In this document: one piece after another, positions 4,960 to 18,985 of the stretch
Position numbering within the stretch: position 1 is the first letter of the stretch
Layout of the letters: each line of letters begins with the position of its first letter
NCBI RefSeq assembly: GCF_020731355.1
Contig: NZ_JAJFZK010000023.1
Span: 1-33,308, forward strand
Direction: 5' to 3'
Source of the DNA: Bacillus sp. REN16
GTDB taxonomy: Bacteria; Bacillota; Bacilli; Bacillales; Bacillaceae_L
Length of the DNA stretch: 33,308 nt
The notes under the pieces: model-generated
Databases searched by the model: none
The model's input: only the letters and a program-made list of their open reading frames with translations
Told to the model about the DNA's origin: nothing
Program-made: the position numbers and the translations under genes

Positions 4960-5118
4960 TTAAAAATCGTGTCGTTCACTTGAAGCTTTCATTCTCTCCT
5001 GTGGATGTGTGTTAATGGAACCATCTGCTCTTGTTGAAGCGTATTCTGCTTTTGCTCTAGGCTCACCTTCAAATTTATTACTATTTTGATTTGGGAATCC
5101 TCGTTTCTTGTTCCGCAT
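4960..5118 (-). CDS. sspK: Small acid-soluble spore protein K
   Basis: A 52-residue protein starting [20 protein letters not shown] and ending ASSERHDF. It matches SspK, a minor small acid-soluble protein of the spore core, including the [20 protein letters not shown] segment and the NTHPQERM segment. The ATG at 5118 has an SD (GGAGG) about eight bases upstream. The 5' UTR is long, about 190 nt from a sigma-G-like promoter at 5319-5348, and is filled by copy 1 of a structured repeat. The YpzG-like gene follows. SspK proteins are made in the forespore and are not needed for viability. Confidence 0.93.
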
Positions 5119-5133
5119 GCGAATACCTCCTTC

Positions 5134-5260
5134 ATCAAATGCGCCTTGGCGTATTTGCGCCCGATTTTTTTCGAGCAGATGCTCGAAAAACTACCTTTGA
5201 AAAATCGTGGCATCTGCCAGCGGCTATAAGTTTATTCAGTAGTTGCTGAATAAACTTATA
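5134..5260 (-). repeat. Structured intergenic repeat, copy 1 (sspK leader)
   Basis: Read on the minus strand: a perfect 15-bp hairpin (TATAAGTTTATTCAG with CTGAATAAACTTATA, 5225-5260); a mini-hairpin TGGC-AGAT-GCCA; a larger stem whose tip is TTTTCGAGCA/TGCTCGAAAA closed by GATTTTT/AAAATC; and a 3' module GCGCAAATACGCCAAGGCGC ending in ATTTGAT just before the sspK RBS. Copies 2 (8867-8999) and 3 (9050-9228) have the same order of elements. It lies inside the predicted sspK 5' UTR. Confidence 0.75.
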
Positions 5261-5318
5261 AGCAAAATTGGATAAAAATCGTGCAAAAAGGCAGTTCACT
5301 CCTTTAAACACGTACTAC

Positions 5319-5348
5319 TAGTATGGAGAACTTCCCTTCTTATCATGT
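5319..5348 (-). promoter_or_regulatory. Sigma-G-type promoter of sspK
   Basis: On the minus strand, ACATGA (5343-5348) and CATACTA (5319-5325) are separated by 17 bp. CATACTA matches the sigma-G -10 consensus as I know it, and ACATG fits the HATR core of the -35. Transcription would begin near 5310, giving a leader of about 190 nt. This fits forespore expression of sspK. Confidence 0.6.
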
Positions 5349-5376
5349 AAAATGGACAGCGTGAATTAATGGAAAT

Positions 5377-5401
5377 CCCCATAACAATGATTGTTATGGG
5401 G
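5377..5401 (-). terminator. Strong hairpin after yfhP
   Basis: A perfect 10-bp stem, CCCCATAACA with TGTTATGGGG, around the loop ATGAT, lies nine bases past the yfhP stop. The U-tract on the minus strand is weak (ATTTCC), so termination may be partial and some yfhP transcript may run on into sspK. Confidence 0.7.
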
Positions 5402-5409
5402 AAAATCAG

Positions 5410-6393
5410 TTAGCTTGGAATAAGCTCTAGTTTTTTACGAAGCTTTTCTTCACTAAAAATCCAGCCCGTATAGGATGTTATAATGTTTAAATCAAGGTCT
5501 AACTGAACAACCGCAACAAAAGGGTAATGCCCTTTGCTTCGATAACGAAGATCGATAAAGCGAACCTCATAATGATCGTCGTACTCGTCAATTTCCCAAC
5601 GATAAACTGGTGAGAAGTGAAGAAAGGCTGCCAGGTTCTTGTCTTCTTTGGCCGCATTGATTACCGGAGTATCGGGAATTGGGCGCTTCGCAAATTGATC
5701 GTGGATAATGATTTCATTGTTTTTGGCGCGGGCGACATAAAAATATTTTTCCGTTACGATTGCAATATGCCATTGATTAAAGCGATAGGTTGGCGAAATG
5801 ATGATTTCTGTGATTTCATCATCAATTTTTGCACGAACCGCTAAGTCGACCTTATTCCGCATTCGAAACCGGATGATATAATAGACAAGCAGGATGACAT
5901 AGACGGAAAAGAAGGTAACTCCCGGATGTAAGCCGAGCTTCCACACGACAATCCCTGCCAAATGTATGAGGAAAATAAATGGATCAAATGTATTGATAAC
6001 TCCTAAAGCTACCCATTTATGAGAAAAGGGCCTTAATGCTTGTGTTCCATACGCATTAAAGATATCAACAAAGACATGGAGAATCACACCAATAAAGGTC
6101 CACATCCAAAGATGAAAAAGATTCGCTTCAGGAAAAAAGAATAAAAGGGCTCCTGTGATTAAGATCGGCCACAATAATACGGCCGGAATGGAATGTGTAA
6201 TTCCACGATGATTTTTTATATAATGAGCATTGTTCCGCAATTTTAGTATGGTATCAAGGTCTGGTGCCTGTGAACCAATTAGCGTTCCAAGGATTACAGC
6301 ATGAGTAGTAGCGGTGTTTACTGTAACAACTGGGTCCAAGGTAGCAATCCCGCCTAATGCAAGACCCATAACGACATGTGTTCCTGTATCCAA
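5410..6393 (-). CDS. yfhP: YfhP-like membrane protein, YdjM/DUF457 metal-dependent hydrolase family
   Basis: A 327-residue integral membrane protein. It begins MDTGTHVVMGLALGG, then GSQAPDLDTILK and NHRGITHSIPAVLLW, the His/Asp motifs of the YdjM family of predicted membrane-bound metal hydrolases. Four to five hydrophobic segments lie between residues 60 and 175, and a soluble C-terminal half follows. It starts at TTG with AAAGGAGGT seven bases upstream. It is divergent from mutY, as I recall for B. subtilis. A regulatory effect on neighbouring genes has been proposed for the B. subtilis homologue, but no DNA-binding domain is visible here. The substrate is unknown. Confidence 0.88.
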   Translation of the reverse strand: MDTGTHVVMGLALGGIATLDPVVTVNTATTHAVILGTLIGSQAPDLDTILKLRNNAHYIKNHRGITHSIPAVLLWPILITGALLFFFPEANLFHLWMWTFIGVILHVFVDIFNAYGTQALRPFSHKWVALGVINTFDPFIFLIHLAGIVVWKLGLHPGVTFFSVYVILLVYYIIRFRMRNKVDLAVRAKIDDEITEIIISPTYRFNQWHIAIVTEKYFYVARAKNNEIIIHDQFAKRPIPDTPVINAAKEDKNLAAFLHFSPVYRWEIDEYDDHYEVRFIDLRYRSKGHYPFVAVVQLDLDLNIITSYTGWIFSEEKLRKKLELIPS

Positions 6394-6503
6394 AAATGGG
6401 ACCTCCTTTTCGTATATGTTCTTAAGTATAATGTAACCAACTAGCTCAATTTAGATAAATTATTTCAATAATAACACCTTGGGAGAAGGAATGGTATTAA
6501 TAA

Positions 6504-7583
6504 ATGAAAATGTTAGAAAAGTTTTCGATAAATAGATTTCAAAAGGATTTAATCAATTGGTTTGAAAAAGAACAGAGGGACCTTCCGTGGAGGGAGGATC
6601 AGGATCCATATAAAGTATGGGTATCTGAAATCATGCTTCAGCAAACAAGGGTCGATACAGTCATTCCGTACTTTGAGAATTTTGTTTCCAAGTTTCCAAC
6701 AATTGAGGATCTTGCTGAAGCCGAAGAGGAAAAGGTCCTCAAAGCATGGGAAGGATTGGGTTATTATTCGCGCGTCAGAAACCTTCATGCGGCAGTGAAA
6801 GAAGTAGCCGCAGAATATGATGGCAAGGTTCCAAATACAGTTAAGGAAATCTCAAGTCTTAAAGGTGTGGGACCTTATACAACTGGGGCAATTCTTAGCA
6901 TTGCTTATGGAATTCCAGAGCCCGCCGTTGATGGCAATGTGATGCGTGTTCTTTCAAGAATTTTATCGATTTGGGATGATATCGCAAAACCAAAAACTCG
7001 TCAGCTATTTGAAGAAGTTGTAAGAGAAATCATTTCAAAAGAGAACCCATCTGCATTTAATCAGGCGTTAATGGAATTAGGTGCATTAATTTGTGTTCCT
7101 GGAAACCCTGCCTGTCTATTGTGTCCGGTACGTGAGCATTGTCGTGCATTTGCTGAAGGGGTTCAAAAAGAGCTCCCAGTAAAAAGTAAGAAAAAGGCGC
7201 CAACCGCTGTTACAATGGCAGCAGTTGTGGTGATGGATGAAAACGGGCGTTTTCTAATCCATAAACGACCGGAAAAAGGACTTTTAGCAAACCTATGGGA
7301 ATTTCCAAATCACGAAACCATTTTAGACCTTCAAGCGCCTAAGGAACAGCTCGGTGAATTTTTAAAAAGGGAATACGAGATTGATGTAAAAATAGGCCAG
7401 GCATTTACTACAATTCAACATGTATTTTCCCATTTAATTTGGAATATCACTGTTTTTGAAGGAAAAATCGAAGGCATTGTGGATGAAACAGACAATTTAA
7501 AACTTGTCAGTCTAAAGGAGTTGGAAGAATATACATTCCCCGTTTCTCATCAAAAGATATTAAAAAGCTTTCTCGCTAAATGA
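6504..7583 (+). CDS. mutY: Adenine DNA glycosylase MutY
   Basis: A 359-residue base-excision repair glycosylase that removes A opposite 8-oxoguanine. The HhH-GPD domain has the catalytic Glu42 (SEIMLQQT) and Asp143 (AVDGNVMRV), with the helix-hairpin-helix [11 protein letters not shown] at 119-129. The [4Fe-4S] cluster ligands are Cys197, Cys204, Cys207 and Cys213 (C-X6-C-X2-C-X5-C). The C-terminal NUDIX-like domain (about 230-359) carries the FSH motif (Phe308-Ser309-His310) used to recognise 8-oxoG. An in-frame stop lies directly upstream, so the start is 6504 or the Met two codons later. The RBS is weak (GGAGAAGGA, about 13 bases away). The gene ends in its own terminator. Confidence 0.96.
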
Positions 7584-7597
7584 GAAAGCTTTTTTGT
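7563..7597 (+). terminator. mutY terminator
   Basis: AAAAGCTTTCTC and GAGAAAGCTTTT form a 12-bp stem overlapping the last codons and the stop of mutY, followed by T-rich sequence. Confidence 0.88.
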
Positions 7598-7606
7598 TCA
7601 TATTAA

Positions 7607-7730
7607 TGTCTGGCTTCAGGTGCCATAGGCTCGAGGTCATAAGTCAATTACTTCTGAAGGCAAATTTCGTCTTTTGTCAGCGCTCGTCTTATGCTTGTTG
7701 CCGATAGACGGGCACCTTATGCTTTTCTTT
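7607..7730 (+). repeat. Dispersed Bacillaceae-type intergenic element with closing stem
   Basis: The segment begins GTCTGGCTTCAGGTGCC and ends GACGGGCACCTTATGCTTTT. Its ends pair as AGGTGCC (7618-7624) with GGCACCT (7711-7717). I have the impression of similar GTCTAGCTCCAGCGCC-type intergenic repeats in other Bacillaceae, but cannot confirm it here. It is non-coding and lies between convergent mutY and yfhS-like. Confidence 0.5.
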
Positions 7731-7951
7731 CAGTCATAAGACATTCGAATATCACTTGTATAGTCATAGTTACGATGAAAACCGCCTCTAGCTGCAATCT
7801 CTTGGACAATTTCACGGTGAAGGGACTGTCCCTCCGCATTTAAATATGGAACAATTTGTTGAAAGGAATGGTGGAAAAAAGCAAGCTCGCTTTCCTTCCA
7901 TTCATTTTTTGGGATCATTGATAAATGAGTCATGTCACGACCAGCATACAT
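7730..7951 (-). CDS. yfhS: YfhS-like small protein
   Basis: A 73-75-residue soluble protein: MYAGRDMTHLSMIP near the N-terminus, then SELAFFHHSFQQIVPYLNAEGQ and an Arg/Tyr-rich tail. I take it as the YfhS-type small protein found next to sspE in Bacillus; function unknown. The ATG at 7951 is ten bases from GGAGG. A TTG at 7957 is in frame but only about four bases from the SD. It is convergent with mutY and divergent from sspE. Confidence 0.75.
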   Translation of the reverse strand: MYAGRDMTHLSMIPKNEWKESELAFFHHSFQQIVPYLNAEGQSLHREIVQEIAARGGFHRNYDYTSDIRMSYD

Positions 7952-8003
7952 CTTCAATTACCCTCCTTTAATATTCACTTGTTCAATTAATAAGATTATC
8001 CAG

Positions 8004-8035
8004 TTGATGAAAAAATATCCTTAAAAATCATAATC
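8004..8035 (+). promoter_or_regulatory. Candidate sigma-G promoter of sspE
   Basis: TGATGA (8005-8010) and CATAATC (8029-8035) are 18 bp apart. CATAATC resembles the sigma-G -10 (CATNNTA) imperfectly. It is supported mainly by sspE genes being forespore-expressed. Confidence 0.35.
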
Positions 8036-8093
8036 TTTTTTTGGATATTAAATTTCGAATCTGGACAAATTAAGTGACGTGGAGGTGATAACA

Positions 8094-8351
8094 ATGGCTA
8101 AACAACCAAACAAGTCTTCAGCTGGAACTAACATTCAACAAGTAAGACAACAAAACGCTCAATCTCAAGGTGCTGGAGGACAATTCGGTACTGAGTTTGC
8201 TAGCGAAACAAACGCTCAGGAAGTAAGAAAACAAAATGCTCAATCTCAAGGTGCTGGAGGAAATTTCGGTACTGAATTTGCTAGCGAAACAAACGCTCAA
8301 GAAGTAAGACGTCAAAACCAAAAGTCTCAGTCTAACAAAGGACAAGGCTGA
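8094..8351 (+). CDS. sspE: Gamma-type small acid-soluble spore protein
   Basis: An 85-residue, Gln/Asn/Gly/Ser-rich protein of the spore core, stored as an amino acid reserve. Two near-identical units each carry QNAQSQGAGG, then FGTEFASETNAQEVR. TEFASET is the recognition site of the germination protease GPR, so there are two cleavage sites. The ATG at 8094 follows GGAGGTG by six bases; an upstream in-frame GTG at 8079 overlaps the SD and is unlikely. It is monocistronic, with a terminator about 30 bp downstream. Confidence 0.96.
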   Translation: MAKQPNKSSAGTNIQQVRQQNAQSQGAGGQFGTEFASETNAQEVRKQNAQSQGAGGNFGTEFASETNAQEVRRQNQKSQSNKGQG

Positions 8352-8380
8352 CATAAACAAAGCATATAATACTTAACACC

Positions 8381-8414
8381 AAAACACTTCCATGCATCCG
8401 CTGGAAGTGTTTTT
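8381..8414 (+). terminator. sspE terminator
   Basis: AAAACACTTCC and GGAAGTGTTTT form an 11-bp stem with an 11-base loop; the T-run is within and after the 3' arm. Confidence 0.85.
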
Positions 8415-8447
8415 CACTTTTGGGCGTTTGGATTAGATGAAGTTCGG

Positions 8448-8492
8448 ATGAAGGACATTCCGGAGCGAGATCAAGAGCGAAAAGTCTTTCAT
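8448..8492. repeat. Imperfect inverted repeat between sspE and ygaB
   Basis: ATGAAGGAC and GTCTTTCAT pair over 9 bp (one G-T) across a 27-base loop, with an outer GATTA/TAATC at 8431-8435 and 8492-8496. It lies in the 260-bp sspE-ygaB gap, which holds no gene. It is a possible degraded intergenic repeat element. Confidence 0.35.
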
Positions 8493-8615
8493 AATCTGGA
8501 TTTGACAAAACCTCCTATTTCTCTACATACAAAGACAAAGGAAATTGAGTCTATTTACAGAAATTATAGGGTATAACGTTAATATTGCTTCATAGACAAT
8601 TAGGAGGATTACAAG

Positions 8616-8870
8616 ATGAGCGATTTTAATAACCTTGTTGGTGAACAGTTAAAAACAATGGACAAGCTCCTTTTCATTCAATCCGAAATTGAAAGATGTC
8701 AGGTGCTTGAGACTCAAATTTTGGAACTTCAAAAAGAGACAGAGCTCGAAACGATAAAAGAAGAGATCAGGCGTATGCAGGAAGAACTTGTGCAAATTCA
8801 TGACTTATTCCAAAAACAAACCGAAGAAGTTATCCGGTCCTATCAGGGAAAAATTCATCAAATAGTGTAA
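8616..8870 (+). CDS. ygaB: YgaB family protein
   Basis: An 84-residue acidic protein that is almost entirely heptad-patterned coiled coil (Leu/Ile/Glu/Gln-rich from about residue 10 to 75). It matches the Bacillus YgaB family in length, character and position between sspE and ygaC; function unknown. The ATG follows AGGAGG. The stop codon lies within the first stem of structured repeat copy 2, so the repeat forms the 3' UTR. Confidence 0.85.
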   Translation: MSDFNNLVGEQLKTMDKLLFIQSEIERCQVLETQILELQKETELETIKEEIRRMQEELVQIHDLFQKQTEEVIRSYQGKIHQIV

Positions 8871-8999
8871 ATTTATTCAGTCGTGGCTATACCCAACTGA
8901 ATAAATTTACGCCTCCGGCGGATGCCACAGATTTTCAAAGGAAATTTTTCGAGCATGCTCGAAAAAATCTGGGCGCAAATACGCCAAGGCGCATTTGAT
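8867..8999 (+). repeat. Structured intergenic repeat, copy 2 (ygaB 3' UTR)
   Basis: GTAAATTTATTCAG (8867-8880) pairs perfectly with CTGAATAAATTTAC (8897-8910). Then come GCCTCCGGCGGATGCCAC, the palindromic TTTTCGAGCATGCTCGAAAA tip closed by GATTTT/AAATC, and the 3' module GCGCAAATACGCCAAGGCGC-ATTTGAT. It is nearly identical to copy 1 (minus strand, 5134-5260) except for the first hairpin, where pairing is kept by compensatory change. Confidence 0.8.
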
Positions 9000-9009
9000 T
9001 AGAGGAAAG

Positions 9010-9045
9010 GAGTCATCGAAAAATTTCCGATGGCTCTTTTGTTTT
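9010..9045 (+). terminator. ygaB terminator
   Basis: GAGTCATCG and CGATGGCTC (one G-T pair) with a 9-base loop, followed by TTTTGTTTT. It lies between repeat copies 2 and 3. Confidence 0.85.
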
Positions 9046-9049
9046 AACA

Positions 9050-9228
9050 TTATTCACCTTTTGGGTGAATAAGTTAAGCCTCCGGCGGATGCCACAAATT
9101 TTAAAAGGAAGCTTTTCGAGCAAAGGATCAAAGACTAAGAACGCCACGTCCTAATGTCTTCGTCTTTGTGACCCACATCACGTGGGCCTAAAAAATCTGG
9201 GCACAATTACGTCAAGTCGTATTTGATA
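9050..9228 (+). repeat. Structured intergenic repeat, copy 3, with replaced tip
   Basis: The first hairpin is TTATTCACC/GGTGAATAA. The shared GCCTCCGGCGGATGCCAC block and TTTTCGAGCA follow, but the TGCTCGAA arm is replaced by about 68 bases with their own stems: CAAAGAC (9129-9135) with GTCTTTG (9162-9168), and CCCAC (9172-9176) with GTGGG (9182-9186). The common 3' part resumes at AAAAAATCTGGGC and ends ATTTGAT. The last bases form the -35 of the ygaC promoter. Confidence 0.7.
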
Positions 9229-18833: not shown

Positions 18834-18985
18834 CGCGAATGGCCCGCGTAAAACGCAAATAATTAAAATAAAGCGCAATTCCTTCGAATAAAGCGCAATT
18901 CCAACCGATTAAAGCGCAATTCCCAAAAATAACGCGCAATTCCAACCGATTAAAGCGCAATTCCCACTCCCCAAAGCGCAATTCC
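18834..18985. repeat. Tandem GCGCAATTCC array with 20-21 bp period
   Basis: Six copies of GCGCAATTCC start at 18873, 18893, 18914, 18934, 18955 and 18976. Two degenerate units (CGCGAAT at 18834, CGCAAAT at 18854) continue the same phase. Spacing is 20, 20, 20, 21, 20, 21, 21, about two helical turns. Linkers vary (AACCGATT-AAA twice). The array lies in the 370-bp gap between ygaE and the hemL terminator; no gene is supported there. Helical phasing suggests a protein-binding array, but the repeat could also be a simple expansion. Confidence 0.85.

What the first reader, a model, noticed from the sequence alone, without database searches (positions are those of the whole stretch)
5134..9228. 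Three-copy structured RNA-like repeat with a compensatory base pair
Seen: the same order of elements (variable AT hairpin, GGC-NGAT-GCC mini-hairpin, GATTTT-closed stem with TTTTCGAGCA tip, GCGCAAATACGCC-type 3' module ending ATTTGAT) occurs at 5134-5260 (minus), 8867-8999 and 9050-9228 (plus). In the first hairpin, AAGTTT/AAACTT of copy 1 becomes AAATTT/AAATTT in copy 2: both partners change and pairing is kept. Copy 3 keeps a hairpin there with different sequence. Inference: selection acts on RNA structure, or the element replicates as a structured mobile unit. Copies occur on both strands, always tight against genes.
Basis: partly seen in the sequence, partly recalled or inferred. Interest (0 to 1): 0.7.

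Follow-up and report, generated by a model that had tools for sequence, protein, structure and literature searches.

The report
Mobile structured repeat with swappable cassette
The three RNA-shaped look-alikes are copies of a small mobile DNA element found about a hundred times in this Bacillus relative; its first hairpin tends to match the spot where it landed, and it gains or loses a known but unexplained RNA piece like a cartridge.

Summary
The three copies belong to a family of about 100 in this genome, present in all 8 same-genus relatives searched and patchily in other Bacillales. It is a MITE-like, non-coding mobile element of about 135 nt: the window copies are missing at orthologous sites in most relatives, as are 9 of 10 further insertions of this genome and 17 of 18 of a sister genome in at least one relative. 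It has no terminal inverted repeat and no consistent target duplication, and lies in the sense direction of the downstream gene in 67 of 73 classifiable cases. Covariation supports the fold (18 of 29 pairs). Copy 3 is a long form whose insert is Rfam's Bacillaceae-1 RNA (RF01690), found in 20 of 20 other long copies tested and gained or lost at orthologous sites. The 5' hairpin is palindromic yet hypervariable, decoupled from the core, and its base includes host sequence; its compensatory changes therefore need not mean RNA selection. The mobilising enzyme was not found.

The parts
5134..5260 (-). Copy 1, short form: 5' hairpin 5225-5260, core from 5224 down, 3' hairpin 5134-5158; 15 nt upstream of a small ORF (ATG at 5118, minus strand; reads like a small acid-soluble spore protein, recalled)
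   Evidence: site empty in 7 of 8 same-genus relatives, the eighth too diverged to align
8866..8999 (+). Copy 2, short form: 5' hairpin 8867-8910, core from 8911, 3' hairpin 8975-8999; hairpin base contains the stop codon 8868-8870 of the upstream ORF
   Evidence: absent in 8 of 8 same-genus relatives
9043..9227 (+). Copy 3, long form: 5' hairpin 9045-9077, core from 9078, insert in the apical loop, 3' hairpin module to 9227
   Evidence: absent in 7 of 8 relatives, the eighth (L212) has what looks like a short remnant
9119..9186 (+). Bacillaceae-1 RNA cassette (RF01690) inside copy 3
   Evidence: 45.1 bits, gathering 35

Best explanation
It is a non-autonomous, MITE-like mobile element that can fold as a single strand: a variable 5' hairpin, a conserved long stem with an apical hairpin, and a 3' hairpin ending in CATTTGAT. 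SHOWN: it moves (empty sites), without a consistent target duplication, into A/T-rich intergenic sites, mostly in the sense direction of the downstream gene; its apical loop exists in two states, a mini-hairpin or the RF01690 cassette of about 60 nt, and the state differs at orthologous insertions. SHOWN IN PART: the base of the 5' hairpin is built with host flank. INFERRED: it is moved in trans as single-stranded DNA by a hairpin-recognising enzyme, most likely a Y1 (HUH) transposase of the IS200/IS605 or RAYT kind (about 0.35; no direct evidence for the enzyme). INFERRED: the arms of the 5' hairpin are kept alike mainly by DNA templating (replication template switching, or copying of the target at insertion) rather than by selection on a transcript (about 0.6).
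For: Copy number and spread. Empty sites. The two ends (TTTAACTTTATTC.. and ..CATTTGAT) are not inverted repeats of each other. Junctions without duplication, e.g. GATTGGGGTTTAA[element]AAAAGGAGG against GATTGGGGTTTAAGAGGAGG. Orientation: downstream 67 same to 6 convergent, upstream 49 same to 9 divergent, of 88. Fold: 18 of 29 pairs with double changes, covariation score 0.151 against 0.061 shuffled and 0.005-0.017 slid. Host match: basal-stem positions j1-j5 paired in 68-80 of 87 copies against 35-54 when permuted, 0 of 5000; host T-runs mirrored by A-runs in L201, L155, L028, L285-L287; direct test against empty alleles, 22 of 2000 permutations as good. Hairpin decoupled from core. Cassette.
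Against: No mobilising gene was identified; of 6 Y1 loci in the genome only an IS200-like pseudogene has an element within 1.5 kb, and genes beside the copies were not annotated systematically. The direct host-match test is modest because sites are A/T-rich, and L316 and L317 do not match. Some sites allow a 2-4 bp duplication (TA, TAA, CAT, CTAA). The permutations do not model relatedness of copies. No transcript or excision data.
Confidence: 0.6

Rival explanations
1. A cis-acting RNA: copies are kept in leaders because the fold protects or regulates the transcript, and hairpin covariation reflects selection on RNA.
For: Sense orientation 67 to 6; the element ends 30 nt or less before the start codon in 42 of 67; core covariation.
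Against: Window copies and most others tested are absent at the same site in relatives; the hairpin does not follow core relatedness; in gaps of 60 nt or more only 7 of 22 lie within 15 nt of the SD, 2.9 expected.
Confidence: 0.15
2. An RNA-copied mobile element: an RNA of the element is inserted at transcribed sites by reverse transcription or reverse splicing, with base pairing to the 5' target as in intron recognition.
For: Sense orientation; no consistent duplication and target-matched basal stem; three 5'-truncated copies with intact 3' module, L297, L299, L300.
Against: Internal deletions and 3'-truncated copies also occur (L295, L298, L301, L304, L303, L022); no reverse transcriptase was looked for or linked; far too short for a known self-splicing intron and no intron family match.
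Confidence: 0.15
3. A DNA element moved by another, unknown recombinase (for instance of the kind moving bcr1-type repeats); the long/short differences are ectopic gene conversion between copies.
For: Structured, MITE-like repeats are known in Bacillus (passages); about 100 similar copies per genome allow conversion; private variants outside the apical part are kept.
Against: No inverted ends and no constant duplication; converted tracts would have to be very short.
Confidence: 0.3

Closest known systems
Bacillaceae-1 RNA (Rfam RF01690)
   Same: The insert of the long form is this family: copy 3 at 45.1 bits, 20 of 20 long copies and 7 of 7 long orthologs given reach the gathering score.
   Different: RF01690 covers only the insert; the surrounding element of about 135 nt matches no Rfam family. 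RF01690 also occurs outside this element: 4 of 30 loci fetched showed this element's modules.
bcr1-bcr3 of the Bacillus cereus group
   Same: High-copy, structured, MITE-like intergenic repeats of Bacillus with transcribed copies (passages of PMC3446304 and PMC6542083).
   Different: No bcr sequence was available to compare (papers not held); the element found nothing in the plasmid collection; R1 hit no genome beyond four outside the genus among 60.
IS200/IS605-derived palindromic elements and REP/RAYT elements
   Same: Hairpins at both ends, no inverted ends, mostly no duplication; Y1 transposase genes exist in the genome.
   Different: No transposase gene inside or shown to act on the element; much longer than the 20-40 bp REPs (PMC3733652, start of abstract); no TnpB (PF07282) in the genome.
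Quasipalindrome template switching
   Same: Would keep two hairpin arms identical and extend them into flanking DNA; a known process in E. coli (PMC7202029, listing and start of abstract).
   Different: A mutation process, not an element; whether it acts here, and whether at or after insertion, is not shown.

Membership tests
RF01690 Bacillaceae-1 RNA | Score at or above 35 bits | tested here: met
   Met by long copies only: copy 3, 20 of 20, 7 of 7 long orthologs. Copies 1 and 2 and 10 of 10 short orthologs given have no match.
Classical MITE | Terminal inverted repeats | tested here: not met
   The ends read TTTAACTTTATTC.. and ..CATTTGAT and do not pair with each other.
Classical MITE | Constant target-site duplication | tested here: not met
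   Junctions against empty sites: mostly none, 2-4 bp possible at some.
bcr1-type repeat | Sequence relation to bcr1-bcr3 | not testable with these tools
   No bcr sequence held. Indirect: no blastn match in plasmids.
IS200/IS605-type element | Hairpins close to both ends | tested here: met
IS200/IS605-type element | Insertion without duplication next to a fixed short target | tested here: inconclusive
   Mostly no duplication; target A/T-rich (often TTAA or a T-run) but not fixed
IS200/IS605-type element | Carries or is moved by a Y1 transposase | not testable with these tools
   6 Y1 loci in the genome; element within 1.5 kb of one, a pseudogene; action cannot be tested
REP/RAYT | 20-40 bp palindrome next to a RAYT gene | tested here: not met
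   Element is about 135 nt; no copy within 1.5 kb of the 5 other Y1 genes
Riboswitch or leader RNA | Conserved position upstream of one kind of gene | tested here: not met
   Position is not conserved between relatives; gene kinds were not annotated systematically

The most novel reading that the evidence does not exclude
The element has no fixed left end: at each insertion its 5' terminal hairpin is rebuilt by copying host sequence at the landing site, so the basal stem of each copy is a reverse-complement record of its target while the rest of the element is inherited. A second mobile part, the RF01690 cassette, is swapped in and out of its apical loop.
Probability: 0.22. Interest if true: 0.85.

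Novelty: new variant of a known kind. Interest (0 to 1): 0.62.

Why it matters
It gives a physical home to an orphan Rfam family: Bacillaceae-1 RNA, reported in 2010 without a function (table seen in PMC2864571), is here a swappable cassette of a mobile element, which changes how its many copies should be read. Of 29 long copies with context in this genome, 22 lie in the sense direction of the next gene, 1 against it and 6 are unclear, so the strand with the RUCCU loops is the one expected in read-through transcripts. That bears on the open strand question and on the proposal that its reverse complement is a CsrA sponge (PMC4333381, passages). It also warns RNA discovery that strong compensatory change in a hairpin can arise from DNA templating in mobile repeats. 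If the left hairpin really is rebuilt from the target, I know of no described element that does this (recall, not a search).

Tried and rejected
Autonomous version: the two modules were sought separately in the whole genome with up to 3 mismatches, and ten places without a strong full-length model hit were fetched (L295-L304). Reading about 300 nt at each: L302 is an ordinary long copy, L296 is a long copy cut by a contig end, L297, L299 and L300 are 5'-truncated, L295, L298, L301 and L304 internally shortened, L303 3'-truncated. None shows the other half further off, but the wider flanks were not searched for genes, so an autonomous form elsewhere is not excluded.

Enzyme: 6 Y1 loci in the genome. 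The model finds an element beside one only, the pseudogene L403. Two of the other five proteins were scanned and resemble NCBI's REP-associated transposase family just below its cut-off (71.8 and 76.4 of 80 bits); three were not scanned. RF01690 lies beside L405, but none of the other 29 RF01690 loci and none of 80 element loci has a relative of four of these proteins at E<=1e-4. I keep this as a lead. TnpB (PF07282): no hit in this genome. Plasmids, phages, viral contigs: no match.

Shine-Dalgarno targeting: the raw peak looked strong, but in gaps of 60 nt or more it is 7 of 22 against 2.9 expected, and my start picker favours starts with an SD, so I claim only a bias. A Hamming version of the arm divergence test was distorted by register shifts and was replaced by edit distance. 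RNA selection on the 5' hairpin: not needed, not excluded.

Rows dropped and limits: one search used 87 of 93 copies (one false start, five without a clear inner hairpin). One search classified 88. One search used 57 short copies. One search used one empty allele per site, chosen by me, for 28 sites. Alignment A2 and model R1 are from short copies, and the G007 copies came from the best R1 hits and are all short, so the 7-of-13 cassette difference is conditional on that. In one search my motif finder was off register at a few of the 30 loci (for example L382).
Full report
WHAT WAS CLAIMED AND WHAT IS THERE. Reading and aligning the sequence confirms all three and the compensatory change AAGTTT/AAACTT to AAATTT/AAATTT between copies 1 and 2. 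A covariance model (R1) built from 30 short copies of the same genome places them at 5134-5260, 8866-8999 and 9043-9227.

HOW MANY. R1 finds 100 places in the genome at E<=0.01 (150 of 2812 first-look candidates scored, the weakest hits are doubtful). Six contig lengths of G007 equal those of F. onubensis RH52_bin.057, so by inference the genus is Ferdinandcohnia.

ANATOMY. From 5' to 3': (i) a variable, usually near-perfect hairpin, consensus TTTAACTTTATTCAG...CTGAATAAAGTTAAA; (ii) the nearly fixed block GCCTCCGGCGGATGCC; (iii) a long stem AC-AGATTTT...AAAATCT-GGGC; (iv) an apical hairpin TTTTCGAGC..GCTCGAAAA; (v) a 3' hairpin CAAATACGCC/GGCGCATTTG, then AT. On 30 copies, 5 of 29 pairs show double changes; the AGA/TCT to GAT/ATC triplet switches in 7-8 of 30; further pair types do not exceed shuffles there. 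On 94 copies from several genera (89 distinct), 18 of 29 pairs do, covariation score 0.151 against 0.061 for shuffles and 0.005-0.017 for slid partners (that alignment was fitted to the model and leans towards it). About a dozen copies have a larger 5' domain inside the same outer palindrome.

IT MOVES. Copy 2 is absent in 8 of 8 relatives. At copy 3, 7 of 8 are clean and one (L212) has what looks like a short remnant. At copy 1, 7 of 8 are empty and one is too diverged to align. For ten further insertions of this genome, 9 have at least one empty ortholog and one (L005) gave no comparable hit; four of the nine sites (L028, L017, L027, L196) also have a filled ortholog in some relative. For 18 insertions of G007, 17 have an ortholog without the element, L307 has only filled ones, and 11 of the 18 sites have a filled ortholog. 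Junctions: GATTGGGGTTTAA[..]AAAAGGAGG against GATTGGGGTTTAAGAGGAGG (L312/L331); TTATCTATTAA[..]TAGG against TTATCTATTAAGTAGG (L314/L337); AGGGATA[..]TATACAT against AGGGATACTATACAT (L313/L353). The best common reading is no duplication, with the final T or AT of the element shared with the host. Some sites allow 2-4 bp (L196/L294, L310, L318, L320). The two ends are not inverted repeats of each other.

WHERE IT LANDS. For 88 copies with enough flank, the downstream gene is on the same strand in 67, convergent in 6 and unclear in 15; the upstream gene is on the same strand in 49, divergent in 9 and unclear in 30 (an open-frame heuristic). The start codon follows within 30 nt in 42 of the 67. 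In co-directional gaps of at least 60 nt, 7 of 22 lie within 15 nt of the SD against 2.9 expected, and 5 of 22 within 15 nt of the stop codon, so SD proximity is a bias, not a rule. Several copies follow terminator T-runs (L201, L155, L028, L017).

THE 5' HAIRPIN. With the register fixed on inner bases only, basal-stem positions j1-j5 are Watson-Crick in 68-80 of 87 copies, against means of 35-54 when partners are permuted among copies (0 of 5000 reach it); j0 is weaker, 53 against 43 (7 of 5000). Relatedness of copies is not modelled. Empty alleles show that outer bases of the 5' arm can be host sequence: ATTCTAGTTTTTTTA in L260 against L028, whose 3' arm ends TAAAA; relatives L285 and L286 at the same site end TAAAAAAAA, L287 ends TAAAAAA; L201 has AAAAAAAA opposite a host T-run. 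A direct test over 28 sites asked whether the 3' arm matches the empty allele of its own site better than those of other sites: summed match length 111 against 100.2 (sd 4.4), 22 of 2000 permutations as high; for the 19 arms that differ from GTTAAA, 77 against 66.3 (sd 4.2), 26 of 2000. That is modest support. L316 and L317 do not match. Pairs of copies whose cores differ by less than 5% (31 pairs) have 3' arms as different (mean edit distance 0.24-0.29) as pairs with 8-20% core difference (0.23-0.27). The two arms track each other (Spearman 0.81) but hardly track the core (0.21); the last 26 nt of the element, which are part of the core, track it at 0.68. So this hairpin is remade or converted much faster than the rest. 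Replication template switching at imperfect palindromes is a known bacterial process (PMC7202029, listing and start of abstract only) and would do this after insertion; copying of the target at insertion would also do it. I cannot separate them here.

THE CASSETTE. Copy 3's insert is RF01690. The 20 long copies given (of 28 long spans) all reach its gathering score. At orthologous insertions where G007 has the short form, the ortholog is long in 7 of 13 comparisons over 10 sites, with shared private variants elsewhere kept. The 7 long orthologs hit RF01690; the 10 short sequences given do not. RF01690 was found in 146 of 299 genomes of the order, 145 over the cut-off, often 16 matches, which was the number scored; among 14 control genomes only Bacillus subtilis rings. 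Of 30 loci fetched, four (L376, L377, L383, L388) show this element's modules; in L376 and L388 the cassette sits in the 5' hairpin instead of the apical loop; four others (L374, L390, L391, L394) sit beside hairpins that resemble IS605 right ends (recalled, not tested). So RF01690 looks like an exchangeable part of more than one repeat. Ectopic gene conversion is a fair alternative for the swaps.

MECHANISM, COMMITTED. Mobile, non-autonomous and structured: shown by empty sites, lack of a reading frame and fold. Moved as single-stranded DNA by a hairpin-recognising Y1-type enzyme in trans: inferred, about 0.35. RNA-copied: about 0.15. Another recombinase: about 0.3. Palindrome upkeep by DNA templating rather than RNA selection: about 0.6.

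NOVELTY. Structured MITE-like repeats of Bacillus are known (bcr1-3; passages in PMC3446304 and PMC6542083; the primary bcr papers were not held). The copy-specific, host-matched hairpin and the RF01690 cassette are new to me. Searches for Bacillaceae-1 and for structured or IS605-like repeats (listings only) and the passages read showed no report of RF01690 as part of a mobile repeat; subscription papers are not covered.

Noticed in passing
L405:1333-1986 (own genome C13): The RF01690 copy that scores best in this genome (81.3 bits) lies beside a RAYT-like Y1 transposase gene; no relative of these genes was found at 29 other RF01690 loci.
   Followed up: partly
L403 (own genome C23:242198-242533): A Y1 transposase pseudogene with two in-frame TGA codons (IS200-like by my reading) lies about 120 bp from element copy L190.
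   Followed up: no
window 18849-18985: Intergenic array of about 20-bp units (TAAAGCGCAATTCC...), seen.
   Followed up: no
5' hairpins of many copies, e.g. L028, L145: The apical part reads like CGGGGTTCAAACCCCG, which resembles a tRNA T-arm (resemblance recalled, not tested).
   Followed up: no
L112: A record titled Arthrobacter beigongshangensis holds three copies of this Bacillales element: contamination, misnaming or transfer.
   Followed up: no
L028 site; L285, L286, L287: One T-run site holds a short copy in this genome and long copies with other arms in three relatives, which looks like two independent insertions at one spot.
   Followed up: partly
L297, L299, L300: Three 5'-truncated copies keep only the 3' module; L299 and L300 lie just before a likely start codon.
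   Followed up: partly
L004, L006, L013, L016, L021, L182, L189 and others: A subset of copies has a larger 5' domain with an extra conserved stretch (AAGTGGGGATGAATGCAAAAAGAGTATAC) inside the outer palindrome.
   Followed up: no
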